Shown piece after piece: positions 1-20,271 of a stretch of 44,842 nt of DNA. This DNA comes from an uncultured Clostridia bacterium. GTDB taxonomy: Bacteria > Bacillota > Clostridia > Oscillospirales > Ruminococcaceae. The notes beneath the pieces were generated by a model. The model did not search any database. It was not told the origin of the DNA and worked only from the letters and a program-made list of their open reading frames with translations. The position numbers and the translations under genes were made by a program. Within the stretch, counting starts at the first letter, position 1. Each line of letters begins with the position of its first letter. Where the stretch lies: the NCBI GenBank assembly GCA_947627455.1, contig CANQWC010000016.1:1-44842 (forward strand), in the 5' to 3' direction.

Positions 1-368
<368 letters not shown>

Positions 369-7033: not shown

Positions 7034-7365
7034 GTCTCATGCCCCCTTTGCACATATATGGGTATTATACTACTTCTGCGCGAAAAGGTCAACAAAAGAT
7101 GCGGCCTTGATGTGGCCTAAACGGCCACATCAAGAAGTTAGAAGTTAGAAATTAGAAGTTAGAGGGCAGAAATCAGACCTCTATCCTCTATCCTCTATCC
7201 TCTATTTCTCTATCATCTAACTTCTATCTTCTATCCTTTTGATGCAGCCCAATCGGCCGCAGCAAAGCAGGGTATAAATCCCCCGCACCTCTTTTAGCTT
7301 TTCAACCCTCTTTCAACATCTTTTTCAACTGCCCCGTTTTCCCCGTTGTTGAAAACCTGCGAAAA
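7034..7365. repeat. Intergenic repeat region: palindromes and inverted 7-bp tandem arrays
   Basis: No gene is visible. A perfect palindrome at 7106-7134 has 12-bp arms (CTTGATGTGGCC) and a 5-nt loop. It is followed by purine-type 7-mers (GAAGTTA, GAAATTA) at 7134-7165, then pyrimidine-type 7-mers (CCTCTAT several times, then CTTCTAT) at 7181-7237. A degenerate copy of the palindrome (TTGATGCAGCC...GGCCGCAGCAA) lies at 7239-7265. The two 7-mer arrays are in opposite polarity and could pair. Related pieces occur at 11345-11406 and 16950-17013. Confidence 0.8.
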
Positions 7366-11269: not shown

Positions 11270-11416
11270 GTTTTACAGAGTGGGAGTGCCCATTCCGCAC
11301 ACATTATCCTCAGCATTTGAAAACGTCGCCATAGGCGACACCTTGAAATTCTGACATCTGACCTCTAATTTCTGTCTTCTTGATGTGGCCGCATCGGCCA
11401 CATCAATTTTTCTCCC
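11270..11416. repeat. Intergenic hairpins and copy of the 7-mer/palindrome repeat
   Basis: No gene. A hairpin GTCGCC-ATA-GGCGAC is at 11325-11339. Pyrimidine-rich 7-mer-like text (CTGACATCTGACCTCTAATTT) is followed at 11380-11406 by a perfect palindrome with 12-bp arms (TTGATGTGGCCG) and CAT loop, the same family as at 7106-7134. It lies between rlmH and the alaS promoter and may act as a terminator-like separator. Confidence 0.75.
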
Positions 11417-16011: not shown

Positions 16012-16902
16012 CTATTTCTGCGGGATTATGATGCTCAGGGCGCGGGAGCGGCAGGTTATGCGGGTCTCGGTGAACGAGCCGCCGCTCTCGCCGTCGAGGG
16101 TCCACGCGAGGGGCTTTTCGCTTCGGAAGGTGATGTCGGCGGTCTTGAAATACTCAAAACAGTCGGCGTAGAAGTCCTTCTTCATGACCGCGGTGAGAAT
16201 TTTGTTAAGGTCGATGGGGTTGCGCGGGTTCTTCACGAGAAGAACCTCGAAGAGGCCGTCGTCAAGGGCGATGTCCTTCGGCAGAAGATTTTTCATTCCC
16301 GCGACCTGCAGGGTATTCGTCACGAGGCCGAGGATATATTCGCCCTCGCCCGAACGCTCATCGGAAGAAAAACTCACATGATAGGGCGTTATATTCGGCA
16401 GAGAGGCCGCGCCCGAGATGAGATAGGCAAAGTAGCCGACGGCGTTTTTGGTGTTCTGGGGAGTGGCGTATGTGACCTCGGTGAAAGCGCCGAAGCCCGC
16501 GACATAGGTGAAGTATCTGCCGTTCATGCAGCCGATGTCATAGGCGAACGGCACGCCGTCTGAGGCGACCCTTGCGGCGGCGAGCGCCTGCATCGGCAGG
16601 CCCATCGAGTGGGAGAAATCGTTTGTCGAGCCGCAGGGGATATAGCCGAACGGGCGGTCGCTTCCGCCCGAGATAAAGCCGTTTATCGCGCAGTTGAGGG
16701 TTCCGTCTCCGCCCGCGACGACAACCCTGTCGACCTTTTGGCAGAGCCTCTTCGCGGTCGCCATGATGTCTTCGCCCGATTGAGACGGGTGGGCGATGAC
16801 GTCCCAGCCCTTTGAGGTATACAGGTTAAGGATCTTGCCCAGATTTCGCCCGACGGTCTGCATGCCCGAGTGGGGGTTATATAATAATAGTAGAGTTTTC
16901 AT
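16012..16902 (-). CDS. YegS/BmrU-type lipid kinase (diacylglycerol kinase family)
   Basis: A 296-aa protein with the diacylglycerol-kinase catalytic signature GGDGT at residues 64-68 and GSTNDF shortly after. It begins LLLLYNPHSG, as in the DagK/YegS/BmrU family. The family phosphorylates diacylglycerol or related lipids for phospholipid turnover. Length is typical. It is convergent with the FGGY kinase, and its promoter region abuts the GC-hairpin element at 17023-17116. Confidence 0.9.
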   Translation of the reverse strand: MKTLLLLYNPHSGMQTVGRNLGKILNLYTSKGWDVIAHPSQSGEDIMATAKRLCQKVDRVVVAGGDGTLNCAINGFISGGSDRPFGYIPCGSTNDFSHSMGLPMQALAAARVASDGVPFAYDIGCMNGRYFTYVAGFGAFTEVTYATPQNTKNAVGYFAYLISGAASLPNITPYHVSFSSDERSGEGEYILGLVTNTLQVAGMKNLLPKDIALDDGLFEVLLVKNPRNPIDLNKILTAVMKKDFYADCFEYFKTADITFRSEKPLAWTLDGESGGSFTETRITCRSRALSIIIPQK

Positions 16903-16949: not shown

Positions 16950-17013
16950 TATTCTGATATCTAACTTCTAATTTCTAATTTCTAACTTCTCGATGTGGCC
17001 TTTCGGCCGCATC
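16950..17013. repeat. 7-bp tandem repeat plus palindrome (third copy)
   Basis: TCTAACT/TCTAATT units repeat with a 7-bp period at about 16960-16989, followed by GATGTGGCC-TTTC-GGCCGCATC (16992-17013). It belongs to the same family as 7106-7265 and 11345-11406, and directly precedes the four-helix element. Confidence 0.75.
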
Positions 17014-17022
17014 GGCCGCAGC

Positions 17023-17116
17023 GGGCGGAGCCCGCGCGCCCCGAAGGGGCGCGCCCCCGAGGCGCCCGAAGGGCGCCTCGGGCCGCCGCCGCGAAGCGGC
17101 GGCGGGGGCTCCGCCC
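17023..17116. repeat. Contiguous four-helix GC hairpin element A
   Basis: Outer arms GGGCGGAGCCC (17023-17033) and GGGCTCCGCCC (17106-17116) are exact complements. Between them are three perfect hairpins with almost no spacers: 17034-17054 (9-bp stem), 17056-17082 (12-bp stem) and 17083-17105 (10-bp stem), each closed by a GAA triloop. Only one base (17055) is unpaired between helices. It lies between the lipid kinase start and the end of the malic enzyme gene. See element B at 19834-19922. Confidence 0.9.
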
Positions 17117-17147
17117 TTGCTTTGTTACCTGCCTCAGCTCTGTTATT

Positions 17148-18317
17148 TCATATTCTTGCCGCGCCGCATTCCCTTGCCGCCTTTACGGCAGCTTCGGCGA
17201 CCGCCTTTGCTACCCTTTTGTCCGTCGCTGAGGGTATTATATAATCCGCTGAAAGCTCATCTTCGCCGACGAGCCCCGCGAGCGCATAGGAAGCCGCAGC
17301 TTTCATCTCTTCGGTTATCTGCTTCGCTCGGCAGTCAAGCGCTCCCCTGAAAATCCCCGGGAATGCAAGAACGTTGTTTATCTGGTTCTTGAAGTCCGAG
17401 CGGCCCGTGCCGACGACCTCTGCACCCGCTTTGAGGGCAAGGTCGGGCATGATCTCGGGAACGGGGTTAGCCATCGGGAAGACGATGGCGCGGGGGGCCA
17501 TCGAGCGGATCATATCTTCGCTGACGATGTTCGGCGCAGACACCCCGATGAATATATCCGCGCCCCTTACGGCGTCGGCCAGAGAGCCTTTCAGGCGTCT
17601 GCGGTTGGTGAGCTTTGAAAGCCGCTCTGTTTCGGGGTTGAGCCAGTCCTCGCCCTCGCAGACAATGCCCTTGATATCGACGAGGGTGACGTCGGTGAAG
17701 CCGATATTCAACAGATGTTGGGCGATCGAGCAGCCCGCCGAGCCCGCGCCGCATATGGTTATTCTTGCGCCGAGGTCTTTGCCGACGACCTTGACCGCGT
17801 TGAGAAGCGCGGCTGCAACAACGATGGCGGTGCCGTGCTGGTCATCGTGAAAAACGGGAATATCGCAGATCTCCTTGAGGCGGCGCTCGACCTCAAAACA
17901 GCGGGGCGCCGAAATATCCTCAAGATTTATTCCGCCGAAGCTGCCCGAAATGAGATAGACCGTTCTGACTATCTCGTCGACGTCCTTCGAGCGGACGCAT
18001 ATCGGGAAAGCGTCGACGTCGGCAAAGGTCTTGAAAAGGGCGCACTTGCCCTCCATGACGGGCATTCCCGCCTCGGGGCCGATGTCGCCGAGGCCCAGAA
18101 CCGCCGTGCCGTCGGTGACAACGGCGATTAGGTTTCCGCGCCGAGTGAGCTCGAACGACTTCTGATAATCCTTCTGAATCTCGAGGCAGGGTTGGGCGAC
18201 CCCCGGGGTATACGCCACCGAGAGGTCGTGTTTATCCTCGATTTTGCACCTCGGCACGACCTCGATTTTGCCGCGCCAGTCGTAATGCTTCTGGAGGGAT
18301 TCTTCGCTGATGGTCAT
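17148..18317 (-). CDS. NAD(P)-dependent malic enzyme
   Basis: A 389-aa protein, the short bacterial malic enzyme. It begins LQKHYDWRGKIEV and has AYTPGVAQPC, VTDGTAVLGLGDIGPEAG, the metal-site region FGGINLEDISAP with VFHDDQHGTA, and a Rossmann ICGAGSAG. It decarboxylates malate to pyruvate. The C-terminal phosphotransacetylase-like domain of long forms is absent, as usual for this class. A promoter is visible at 18356-18383. It follows fumarase on the same strand, so fumarate to malate to pyruvate is encoded side by side. Confidence 0.93.
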   Translation of the reverse strand: MTISEESLQKHYDWRGKIEVVPRCKIEDKHDLSVAYTPGVAQPCLEIQKDYQKSFELTRRGNLIAVVTDGTAVLGLGDIGPEAGMPVMEGKCALFKTFADVDAFPICVRSKDVDEIVRTVYLISGSFGGINLEDISAPRCFEVERRLKEICDIPVFHDDQHGTAIVVAAALLNAVKVVGKDLGARITICGAGSAGCSIAQHLLNIGFTDVTLVDIKGIVCEGEDWLNPETERLSKLTNRRRLKGSLADAVRGADIFIGVSAPNIVSEDMIRSMAPRAIVFPMANPVPEIMPDLALKAGAEVVGTGRSDFKNQINNVLAFPGIFRGALDCRAKQITEEMKAAASYALAGLVGEDELSADYIIPSATDKRVAKAVAEAAVKAARECGAARI

Positions 18318-18355
18318 AGTTCAACTTCCTTTTATGTAAAAATTTGTGAAATTTT

Positions 18356-18383
18356 GTATACTCAGAGTATTATTTGAGACAAA
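18356..18383 (-). promoter_or_regulatory. Putative malic enzyme promoter
   Basis: On the reverse strand, -35-like TTGTCT (18378-18383), 16-bp spacer and -10 TATACA (18356-18361) lie in the 100-bp AT-rich gap after fumC. Confidence 0.5.
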
Positions 18384-18400
18384 ATATACTTTTAGTGGGG

Positions 18401-18417
18401 CAAAAAGCATGCTTTTT
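18401..18417 (-). terminator. Weak terminator-like palindrome after fumC
   Basis: AAAAAGCATGCTTTTT directly follows the fumC stop codon (18418-18420). It is a self-complementary hexamer stem with a T-run but is short, so readthrough into the malic enzyme gene is possible. Confidence 0.4.
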
Positions 18418-19791
18418 TCAGGTCATCTCCTCGGGCCTGAATACCCTGTCGAATTCTTCGGGGGTCAAAAAGCCGAGCTCGACAGCCGCCTCTTTGAGGG
18501 TGATGTCTTTCTCAAACGCAAGCTTGACCGTCTTTGCGGCGTTCTCATAGCCGATAGACGGGTTCAGCGCCGCCGCAAGCATCAGCGACTTATTTACATT
18601 TTCTGTCATCTTCCCGACGTTCGGCTTTATTCCCGAAACGCAGTTTTTGCGGAAGCTCTCGATGACATCGCCCAAAAGACGGACAGACTGTAAATAATTG
18701 TAAGCGATCACGGGCAGGAATACGTTGAGCTGGAAGTTGCCCTGAGAGGCCGCGAAGCCGATTGCGGCGTCGTTGCCCATCACCTCGACCGCGACCATTG
18801 TCACCGCCTCGCACTGGGTCGGGTTGACCTTGCCCGGCATTATCGAGCTGCCCGGCTCGTTCGCGGGAATGGTTATCTCGCCGAGGCCCGTTCTCGGCCC
18901 AGAGGCAAGCCAGCGGACATCGTTCGCGATCTTCATGAGGTCGGCCGCGAGCGCCTTTAGTGCGCCATGGGCAAAAACCGCCTCGTCCTGAGAGCTCAGC
19001 GAGTGGAATTTATTCGGGTCGGTTTTGAAGTTATGCCCCGTCGCGAGGGAGATTTTTTCGGCGACGAGCTCGTCAAAGCCTTTCGGAGCGTTGAGGCCCG
19101 TGCCGACCGCCGTTCCGCCGAGTGAGAGGTTTGAAAGCGTTTCAAACGAGAGGATTATCTGCTCGCGGGAGCGGTCAAGGAGCGCTCGCCAGCCGCTTAT
19201 CTCCTGAGAAAAACGGATCGGTACGGCGTCCTGCAAATGGGTTCGGCCGCACTTGAGAACCCCGTCGTTTTCGCTCTCGAGGCGAGAGAACTCATCAATA
19301 AGCCCCAAAAGCGCGGGGAGAAGCCGCTCCTTTGTTTCGCACACGGCGGCGATATGTATCGCGGCGGGGAAGGTGTCGTTCGACGACTGGGACATGTTCA
19401 CGTCGTCGTTCGGGTGGAGAAGCTTTTTGCCGGCGATTTGGTTTCCCCTGTTCGCGATGACCTCGTTTAAATTCATGTTGGTCTGGGTGCCCGAGCCCGT
19501 CTGCCAGATCGCGAGGGGGAACTCGTTCGGCAGCTTGCCCGCGATTATCTCGTCGCAGGCGGCGGATATCGCCCTGAGCTTTTCTTCGGTCATGCGCTCG
19601 GGCAGGAGCTCGCGGTTGGCCTCGGCGCAGGATTTTTTCAGCACCGCGAACGCGCGTATAAGCTCGGGCGGCATTTTTTCAACGCCGATTTTAAAATTTT
19701 CAAAGCTGCGCTGGGTCTGAGCGCCCCAGAGGTGCTCGGCGGGGACTTTTACCTCGCCCATTGAGTCGTGTTCGATGCGGTAGTTGGCCAT
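18418..19791 (-). CDS. fumC: Class II fumarate hydratase
   Basis: A 457-aa protein of normal FumC length. It carries the superfamily signature GSSIMPGKVNPTQCE and the active-site regions GSGTQTNMNLNEV and GRTHLQDAVPI. It interconverts fumarate and malate without an iron-sulfur cluster. The malic enzyme follows downstream. Upstream lies the four-helix GC element B (19834-19922), inside the 162-bp gap to the next gene. Product could be aspartase or another superfamily member in principle, but SGPRTGLGEI and the overall pattern favour fumarase. Confidence 0.95.
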   Translation of the reverse strand: MANYRIEHDSMGEVKVPAEHLWGAQTQRSFENFKIGVEKMPPELIRAFAVLKKSCAEANRELLPERMTEEKLRAISAACDEIIAGKLPNEFPLAIWQTGSGTQTNMNLNEVIANRGNQIAGKKLLHPNDDVNMSQSSNDTFPAAIHIAAVCETKERLLPALLGLIDEFSRLESENDGVLKCGRTHLQDAVPIRFSQEISGWRALLDRSREQIILSFETLSNLSLGGTAVGTGLNAPKGFDELVAEKISLATGHNFKTDPNKFHSLSSQDEAVFAHGALKALAADLMKIANDVRWLASGPRTGLGEITIPANEPGSSIMPGKVNPTQCEAVTMVAVEVMGNDAAIGFAASQGNFQLNVFLPVIAYNYLQSVRLLGDVIESFRKNCVSGIKPNVGKMTENVNKSLMLAAALNPSIGYENAAKTVKLAFEKDITLKEAAVELGFLTPEEFDRVFRPEEMT

Positions 19792-19833
19792 TTGGATACC
19801 TCGCTTTGTATTTTTGGTCGGGAGGGGGAACGC

Positions 19834-19922
19834 GGGCGAAGCCCGCGGCCGCCCGCAGGGCGGCCGCGCCCCGCAGCGGAGCTGCGGGGCCGCCGACCCT
19901 TCGGGTCGGCGGGGCTTCGCCC
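19834..19922. repeat. Contiguous four-helix GC hairpin element B
   Basis: Outer arms GGGCGAAGCCC (19834-19844) and GGGCTTCGCCC (19912-19922) are exact complements. Three perfect hairpins fill the interior with no spacer bases: 19845-19867 (10 bp, GCA loop), 19868-19890 (10 bp, GGA loop) and 19891-19911 (9 bp, TTC loop). The architecture matches element A at 17023-17116 while the stem sequences differ. It lies 43 bp upstream of the fumC start. Confidence 0.9.
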
Positions 19923-19953: not shown

Positions 19954-20271
19954 TTAAACCTTTCTGTAATAAGAATAATGCGCAACAACGTAGCGCTTCT
20001 CGCCCGTGTAGGCGTCGAAGCCGCTTATTTCAACGCCGTTGCCCGACAAAAGCTCGGCGACGGTGGCACCCTTTATTTTGCAGCGGAAAACCTCGTGAGC
20101 CTCGCACATCACAACTATAACATCGTCAAGAATGATTATTCCGCCCTCTTTGCCGAGCATCTGCTCTTGGCCGTCGACACGCTCGACAGCGTAGATTATC
20201 GACTTTCCGTTGAAGCGCTCAAGCTCCTTGCGGGAAAGCGCGTATTTGTCCTTTTTTCCGAAAAGCCCCAT
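19954..20271 (-). CDS. Hypothetical protein, 105 aa
   Basis: I do not recognise the family. The protein begins MGLFGKKDKYALSRKELERFNGKSI, then shows alternating beta-type segments (IIILDDVIVVMCEAHEVFRCKIKGATVAELLSG) and ends VVAHYSYYRKV. No signal peptide or membrane helix is visible; it looks like a small beta-rich cytoplasmic domain. AGGAGG sits 5 nt before the ATG, a strong start. It is 9 bp downstream of the Nudix gene and is probably the end of a maf-Nudix unit. Confidence 0.8.
   Translation of the reverse strand: MGLFGKKDKYALSRKELERFNGKSIIYAVERVDGQEQMLGKEGGIIILDDVIVVMCEAHEVFRCKIKGATVAELLSGNGVEISGFDAYTGEKRYVVAHYSYYRKV

What the first reader, a model, noticed from the sequence alone, without database searches (positions are those of the whole stretch)
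17023..19922. Two spacer-free four-helix DNA/RNA crosses with conserved architecture but different sequence
Elements 17023-17116 and 19834-19922 each consist of an 11-base outer arm, three perfect hairpins of 9-12 bp with 3-nt loops, and the exact complement of the outer arm, with zero or one unpaired base between helices. Each outer arm is itself nearly self-complementary, so the element can also fold as five hairpins in a row. Stem sequences differ between the two while pairing and layout are kept, as expected if structure is selected. Both lie in gaps around fumC/malic enzyme. It could be a transposable hairpin unit, a cruciform protein-binding site, or a structured RNA.
Basis: seen in the sequence. 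Interest (0 to 1): 0.75.

Follow-up and report, generated by a model that had tools for sequence, protein, structure and literature searches.

The report
Dispersed four-way-junction DNA repeats
These two spots belong to a family of about 90-base repeats scattered through gaps between genes in some gut Clostridia; the copies can fold into the same four-armed cross although their letters differ widely, which suggests that shape rather than sequence is what is kept.

Summary
E1 (17023-17116) and E2 (19834-19922) fold into a four-helix cross and belong to a large dispersed family. A structure-only scan (two or more inner hairpins) found 191 unique crosses with three hairpins, 3 with two, 1 with four, 2 with five. 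A rumen Ruminococcaceae with AT-rich stems has 71 in 478 kb; a control congener has none in 400 kb, Markov sequence none in 259 kb. Between the anchor genes, 9 of 12 genomes (E1) and 9 of 10 (E2) carry a cross, mostly with different stems. Pairing covaries: 394 double-change cells, 7 one-sided. Along transcripts G.T mismatches do not exceed A.C (10:13), so no RNA-wobble signature. Gene context is near background and no target-site duplication is seen. Y1 transposase domains occur in 7 of 15 cross-bearing genus genomes, 1 of 16 others, not in the window's own. Best reading: non-autonomous, probably mobile DNA repeats defined by a folded four-way junction, their stems re-matched by templated DNA correction. 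The mobilising enzyme is unknown.

The parts
17023..17116 (.). E1, complete four-helix cross (94 nt)
   Evidence: covariance-model hit 83.2 bits, but the model was built from it
17023..17033 (.). E1 outer arm, 5' side (GGGCGGAGCCC)
   Evidence: I4; commonest arm type in the family is GGCGNAGCC
17034..17054 (.). E1 hairpin 1, 9 bp, loop GAA
17056..17082 (.). E1 hairpin 2, 12 bp, loop GAA
17083..17105 (.). E1 hairpin 3, 10 bp, loop GAA
17106..17116 (.). E1 outer arm, 3' side (GGGCTCCGCCC)
   Evidence: I4
19834..19922 (.). E2, complete four-helix cross (89 nt)
   Evidence: found by the E1-built covariance model at 47.4 bits on the minus strand
19834..19844 (.). E2 outer arm, 5' side (GGGCGAAGCCC)
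   Evidence: I10
19844..19868 (.). E2 hairpin 1, up to 11 bp, loop GCA (shares its end bases with its neighbours)
19868..19890 (.). E2 hairpin 2, up to 10 bp, loop GGA
19890..19912 (.). E2 hairpin 3, up to 10 bp, loop TTC
19912..19922 (.). E2 outer arm, 3' side (GGGCTTCGCCC)
   Evidence: I10

Best explanation
E1 and E2 are copies of a short (about 70-110 nt), non-coding, dispersed DNA repeat whose identity lies in its fold: an outer stem of about 11 bp enclosing almost always exactly three short-loop hairpins of about 9-10 bp, joined with few unpaired bases, i.e. one strand folded into a Holliday-junction-like four-way junction. Shown here: high copy number, dispersal, presence/absence differences between congeners, conserved architecture with free sequence, and Watson-Crick covariation at orthologous gaps. 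Inferred: the copies are non-autonomous mobile elements that act as folded single strands (or cruciforms) during replication; a junction- or hairpin-specific enzyme, not identified, moves them without target-site duplication; polymerase template switching within the hairpins re-matches the arms and sometimes inverts the loops, so sequence drifts while pairing stays near perfect.
For: Copy number: 11 pattern places in the own genome, control 0; 0 to 219 per genome within one genus; 71 per 478 kb in the rumen species. Strict layout: 191 unique crosses with three hairpins against 6 with two, four or five (one-hairpin forms are not counted by that scan); of 283, 88 with no unpaired junction base and 159 with at most one, after choosing the outer-stem length that minimises it. 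Free sequence: GC-rich stems in the window's genus, AT-rich stems with the same type of outer arm in RUG14213. Orthologous gaps: cross in 9 of 12 (E1) and 9 of 10 (E2) genomes, absent in the others. Covariation: 97.9% of cells paired, against 43-50% when partners are slid by 1-3 columns; 394 double-change cells, 7 one-sided. No RNA-wobble tolerance: G.T 10, A.C 13 over 129 co-directional elements. Exact loop inversions in 7 of 37 comparable stems, e.g. TTC against GAA at the E1 site of G003 and G011. Sequence-similar copies on many different contigs in G010 and G015. Sites in related repeats without a cross: one with only a single arm palindrome, one empty. Template switching homogenises inverted-repeat arms and inverts spacers (PMC8604942, passages).
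Against: No transposition was observed and no mobilising enzyme found. No target-site duplication, so insertion boundaries rest on few sites. Loop inversions are only moderately enriched: 28 of 89 changed loops against 18% expected by random draw, with non-independent pairs; per stem, 7 of 37 show an inversion and 14 a single substitution. Strong selection on shape could give the same covariation. In RUG14213 hairpin order is biased relative to co-directional genes (24:10, p=0.024, one of three tests; 13:5 by an earlier, partly overlapping count), which a purely DNA-level reading does not predict. Convergent gaps outnumber divergent ones 50:30. My scanner favours perfect pairs, so the low G.T share is biased; one search uses a structure-fitted alignment.
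Confidence: 0.48

Rival explanations
1. Structured RNA element: each cross is transcribed and acts in untranslated regions, for example as a terminator, stability element or regulator, and selection on the RNA fold keeps the pairing.
For: Very stable RNA folds; strong covariation; polarity bias 24:10 in RUG14213; mild excess of convergent gaps, 50:30 over divergent and 15 of 67 against 33 of 219 gaps.
Against: G.T 10 against A.C 13 along the transcript; 9 G.U cells and 33 unpaired cells of 1548 against 394 double-change cells, while tRNA acceptor stems in the held DNA have 12 G.U of 294. In RUG14213 the gene context is 40 co-directional, 15 convergent, 12 divergent against 145/33/41 for gaps of 100 bp or more. 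No Rfam family reaches its gathering score at E1 or E2. Congeners without crosses keep the same genes.
Confidence: 0.17
2. Selection for a cruciform or junction site bound by a chromosomal protein (nucleoid, replication or recombination factor), with copies maintained for that function.
For: Nearly always four arms and few unpaired junction bases, as a junction-binding protein would demand; found in gaps of each orientation.
Against: Thirteen of 31 genus members show no arm-pattern match and a 400-kb stretch of one of them has none by structure, so it is dispensable in the genus; copy number varies from 0 to 219 among congeners.
Confidence: 0.13
3. REP/BIME-type palindromes moved by a REP-associated tyrosine (Y1, IS200/IS605-like) transposase.
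For: Intergenic, palindromic, high copy, no target duplication. Y1 domains were found in 7 of 15 cross-bearing genus genomes and 1 of 16 others, an association that may reflect shared ancestry; some of the seven are fragments or carry stops.
Against: No Y1 domain found in 8 of the 15 cross-bearing genus genomes, including the window's own, which is 99.4% complete; RUG14213 was not searched for it. No GTAG or CGTC tag enrichment at edges: GTAG 13, CGTC 6 of 281 against 8 and 16 at random sites.
Confidence: 0.11
4. No mobility: local palindromes grow in place by template switching and look like a family because the mutational process favours this shape.
For: Arm re-matching and loop inversion are what template switching does (PMC8604942, PMC8794818, passages); arms other than GGCGNAGCC occur.
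Against: Does not explain three hairpins, shared arm sequence between the window's genus and RUG14213, or similar copies on different contigs.
Confidence: 0.1

Closest known systems
Repetitive hairpin-forming elements / double-hairpin elements of mitochondrial DNA (sponges, Allomyces)
   Same: Short dispersed hairpin repeats in gaps; stems differ by few complementary substitutions; no flanking duplications reported for Allomyces (PMC2800124, passages).
   Different: Hairpins, double hairpins or more elaborate forms in organelles; here bacteria, an outer stem closing three hairpins, and up to hundreds of copies.
Yeast mitochondrial GC clusters (GC42)
   Same: Palindromic, mostly intergenic, presence/absence between strains, merging of units (PMC4478555, passages).
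   Different: [quoted passage not shown] here sequence is free and no duplication is seen.
REP / BIME / REPIN with RAYT transposases
   Same: High-copy intergenic palindromes in bacteria.
   Different: REPs are sequence families tagged GTAG or CGTC, and G-T stem pairs are often seen (PMC3733652, passages); here no tag enrichment, no Y1 domain in the own genome, few G-T pairs.
Bacterial MITEs
   Same: Small non-autonomous intergenic units with terminal inverted repeats.
   Different: MITEs share sequence and usually duplicate their target (recalled); here neither holds in general.
Integron attC sites (recalled, no call)
   Same: Recognised as folded single-stranded DNA with little sequence conservation.
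   Different: One imperfect hairpin beside cassettes, not a four-way junction scattered through gaps.

Membership tests
REP/RAYT | GTAG or CGTC tag at the edge | tested here: not met
   281 crosses: GTAG within 8 nt in 13, CGTC in 6; random sites 8 and 16
REP/RAYT | Y1 transposase in the host genome | tested here: not met
   PF01797 in 8 of 31 genus genomes, 7 of them among the 15 with crosses; none in the window's genome
MITE | target-site duplication | tested here: not met
   179 elements: direct repeats of 2-8 nt at the edges no more frequent than in permuted pairs
MITE | conserved terminal inverted repeats | tested here: inconclusive
   GGCGNAGCC-type arms in 165 of 191, other in 26 by that script's test, many of which still contain a shortened arm of that type
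RHE/DHE-like hairpin elements | dispersed hairpins with complementary stem changes | tested here: met
RHE/DHE-like hairpin elements | organelle genome | tested here: not met
   bacterial genomes
IS110-associated repeat | DEDD transposase in host | tested here: not met
   PF01548 over cut-off in 5 of 28 genomes, not in G000, G019 or RUG14213
Known RNA family | Rfam match at gathering score | tested here: not met
   only 16S rRNA in the window
Intrinsic terminator | position at 3' ends / convergent gaps | tested here: inconclusive
   15 of 67 convergent against 33 of 219 gaps in RUG14213; 50 convergent, 30 divergent, 129 co-directional overall
Integron attC | recombined by IntI as folded bottom strand | not tested
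   no integrase search was run

The most novel reading that the evidence does not exclude
A mobile DNA element recognised by shape alone: a single strand folded into a perfect four-way (Holliday-junction-like) cross is the substrate of a junction-specific recombinase or resolvase, so its sequence is free to drift and is continually re-matched by template switching, giving hundreds of copies that ordinary homology searches cannot link.
Probability: 0.27. Interest if true: 0.92.

Novelty: new variant of a known kind. Interest (0 to 1): 0.78.

Why it matters
Repeat families are normally found by sequence. This one is defined by a fold, reaches about one copy per 7-10 kb in the sampled part of one genome, and would largely be missed by sequence clustering. 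It offers natural, replicated material for asking how perfect palindromes survive, how fast template switching rewrites DNA, and whether a four-way junction can itself be a transposition signal. I saw no description of it in the listings of eight library searches, which cover open-licence PMC papers only.

Tried and rejected
MAFFT alignments of divergent copies misaligned hairpins and were not used for pair counts.

IS110 as mobiliser: over cut-off in 5 of 28 genomes only. Y1: associated (7 of 15 against 1 of 16) but absent from the own genome. Target-site duplication: none. Replication-strand orientation by GC skew in RUG14213: 25:25. Arms alone as evidence: in 22 loci from other bacteria with the exact arm pair, the first match of each was parsed and none has an interior filled at 85% or more by three hairpins. 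Phages: 3 viral contigs matched the arm pattern; the two I read do not look like crosses, the third was not examined on its own. Loop inversion is not strongly above random draw, so I do not lean on it. First ORF-context counts were spoiled by spurious ORFs or small samples and were replaced. Order-wide scan with exact 11-nt arms: 3 of 394 genomes, the 3 being among the 5 genus members drawn, 0 of 389 others. Relatives of RUG14213: 11 of 97 matched, with 1-3 matches each; no cross in the 14 loci scanned.

Limits of counts: one search uses 42 rows, some of which are the two strands of one element. The strict scan misses crosses with an imperfect arm: the own-genome cross at C2:74115 lies in a scanned stretch and was not reported; the G016 E1 cross and a second G018 cross were seen by the covariance model and by eye only. 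Stretches for searches were taken by contig, not by cross, but several contigs were chosen because they were known to hold matches. Solo arm palindromes in G010/G026 were mixed: some crosses with a changed arm, some simple hairpins, some apparently in coding sequence (by eye).

Full report
Observation. The four-helix cross is the predicted minimum-energy fold of both strands as DNA (z -8.0 to -9.8, 0 of 200 shuffles as good) and as RNA. E1 lies between malic enzyme (17148-18317, minus) and a diacylglycerol-kinase-like gene (16012-16902, minus). E2 lies between a 105-aa ORF without a Pfam match (19954-20271, minus) and fumarase C (18418-19791, minus).

A family in the own genome. A pattern made from the outer arms only gives 11 places in the 1.99-Mb genome and none for the reversed control. 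Ten of them parse as three hairpins between the arms; C4:72020 parses with two. Two more crosses, C2:74115 and C5 near 40600, have arms outside the pattern, and C35:12265 is a one-hairpin form. In 400 kb of own-genome stretches the strict structural scan reports two, one of them at C2:72202 with arm GGCGCCCCGC; it misses C2:74115, whose arm has a mismatch. That makes at least 13 three-hairpin crosses.

A family in the genus. The same pattern over 60 relatives: 25 match. Among 31 genus members counts run 0 (13 genomes), 1 or 2 (3 genomes; the one hit of each that was parsed is not a cross) and 4 to 219 (15 genomes); controls in these are 0-2. In another genus of the family, G031 has one match, which parses as a cross. 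By the locus list, 93 are uncultured Clostridia from rabbit gut (Lapin MAGs), 2 a rumen Ruminococcaceae (RUG14213), 2 a roe-deer Oscillospiraceae (RGIG4672) and 22 other bacteria; in the first match of each of those 22 the arms occur without three filling hairpins. Contig lengths tie G019 to Lapin-025 bin54 and G018 to Lapin-015 bin65.

Layout. With no sequence requirement, 1.34 Mb of held DNA (chosen mostly because it held arm matches) contains 191 unique outer stems filled by three hairpins, against 3 with two, 1 with four and 2 with five; forms with a single hairpin are not counted by that scan. Stretches taken by contig rather than by cross agree: RUG14213 has 71 with three, 6 with two, 1 with four and 1 with five in 478 kb, of which 37 with three lie in the first 140 kb, on two contigs known to hold matches, and 34 in the other 338 kb; G018 15 in 159 kb; G019 2 in 100 kb; congener G014, without pattern matches, 0 in 400 kb; Markov sequence 0 in 259 kb. 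Over 283 unique crosses in all held DNA, outer stems average 11.2 bp and hairpins 8.7, 9.7 and 8.8 bp; 88 have no unpaired base at the junction and 159 at most one, with the outer-stem length chosen to minimise it. In 166 crosses, nearly all from the window's genus, loops are mostly GNA or its complement closed by C-G; in RUG14213 AAA or its complement is the commonest (79 of 213 loops). That a DNA GNA triloop closed by C-G is unusually stable is recalled, not tested.

Sequence is free. RUG14213 (35% GC in the first 140 kb) uses arms such as GGCGGCGAGCC and GGGCGAAGCCC, but A/T-rich hairpins in a recurring order: AAAGCCC-type, GCAAAAGC-type, CCAAAAACA-type, up to orientation, assignable with confidence in 62 of 71. 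Arm GC is 0.69 and inner stem GC 0.41. In the window's genus, some genomes hold many similar copies (G010, G015), while the 11 listed in the own genome look different from one another.

Orthologous gaps. At the E1 gap, both anchor genes were found in 11 relatives. Counting the window, 9 of 12 have a cross, one (G016) with arm GGGCAAATCCCC and one (G021) with an arm of about 19 bp; G028, G018 and G007 have none. Between the E2 anchors 9 of 10 have one, G018 and G019 two each; G005 has none. In several genomes the E2 interval also holds extra genes. Stems differ widely; in G003, G005 and G011 the E1 crosses are recognisable as homologous, with the same GCGGAAGC stem and loops TTC, GCA and GAA. 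Other orthologous sets show the same (L098/L132/L149, L109/L133, L032/L052).

Covariation and DNA or RNA. On a structure-fitted alignment of 42 rows, 97.9% of cells pair, against 43-50% when partners are slid; 38 of 42 pairs have double changes; 394 cells changed on both sides, 7 on one side, 33 unpaired; 9 cells are G.U. The fit leans to the structure, and some rows are opposite strands of one element. If RNA were selected, G.U should be tolerated on the transcript strand and A.C not: over 129 elements between co-directional genes I count 10 and 13. tRNA acceptor stems in the held DNA have 12 G.U of 294; hairpin stems of crosses 22 G.T and 31 A.C of 7738, with a scanner that favours perfect pairs. 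Gene context in RUG14213 is 40 co-directional, 15 convergent, 12 divergent against 145, 33, 41 gaps of 100 bp or more; 1 of 71 crosses lies within an ORF. Overall 129 co-directional, 50 convergent, 30 divergent. Against a pure DNA reading: hairpin order relative to co-directional genes is 10:24 (p=0.024), although by GC skew it is 25:25 and by coding-strand bias 19:25.

How it may move and change. No target duplication was detected in 179 elements. Within larger repeats of G019, three related copies carry a cross where one site (L150:4015-4119) has only a single GGGCTTCGCCC palindrome, and one pair shows a site with no palindrome at all. Deletion between the short repeats in the two arms could leave such a solo, or an element could enter such a palindrome; I cannot tell which. 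Y1 transposase domains were found in 7 of 15 cross-bearing genus genomes and 1 of 16 others, but not in the own genome; IS110 domains pass the cut-off in 5 of 28. So the mobiliser is unknown, and a Y1 enzyme is not excluded elsewhere. Arm re-matching is explained most simply by polymerase template switching, which homogenises inverted-repeat arms and inverts spacers in yeast (PMC8604942, passages) and can create and maintain hairpins (PMC8794818, passages). Loop inversions occur here (7 of 37 comparable stems; 14 show a single substitution) but are only moderately above a random draw.

Comparison. The nearest known kinds are hairpin repeats of mitochondrial DNA (PMC2800124; yeast GC clusters, PMC4478555) and bacterial REPs (PMC3733652), all read as passages only. 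What differs is the four-way junction with three inner hairpins, in bacteria, without a sequence family, tag, target duplication or a transposase found in every carrier. I therefore call it a new variant of a known kind, with the shape-recognised mobile element as the bolder reading.

Noticed in passing
window 16952-17016; also 7106-7134 and 11380-11406: A second dispersed repeat lies directly beside E1: degenerate heptads followed by a GATGTGGCC...GGCC(A/G)CATC hairpin; further matches in G000, G028 and G010.
   Followed up: partly
window 16952-16995; L138, L142, L157 flanks: Arrays of degenerate 7-base units (such as TTCTGAT, ATCTGAC) often stop close to a cross in G019 and in Lapin-033 bin31 (by eye).
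   Followed up: no
L234:1480-2371: In G019 the malic enzyme-fumC gap holds three tandem units of about 400 bp, each with a cross; two have loop GAA and one TTC in the same hairpin.
   Followed up: partly
L112, L124, L129, L138 flanks: Several G019 crosses sit beside sequences like GATAGGAGCAG or CTGCTCCTATC, as if inside a larger inverted repeat (by eye).
   Followed up: no
L009:1494-1583 and L064: One own-genome cross lies in a region 93% identical to G018 over 800 bases on each side, against 79-80% at the malic enzyme-fumC genes: possible recent transfer.
   Followed up: no
L276, L279, L282, L286, L287: In G010, single GGGCTTCGCCC palindromes form part of a longer hairpin ahead of an AAAAGGCTTG-type repeat (by eye).
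   Followed up: no
window 1-368: Partial 16S rRNA gene on the minus strand at the contig end.
   Followed up: no
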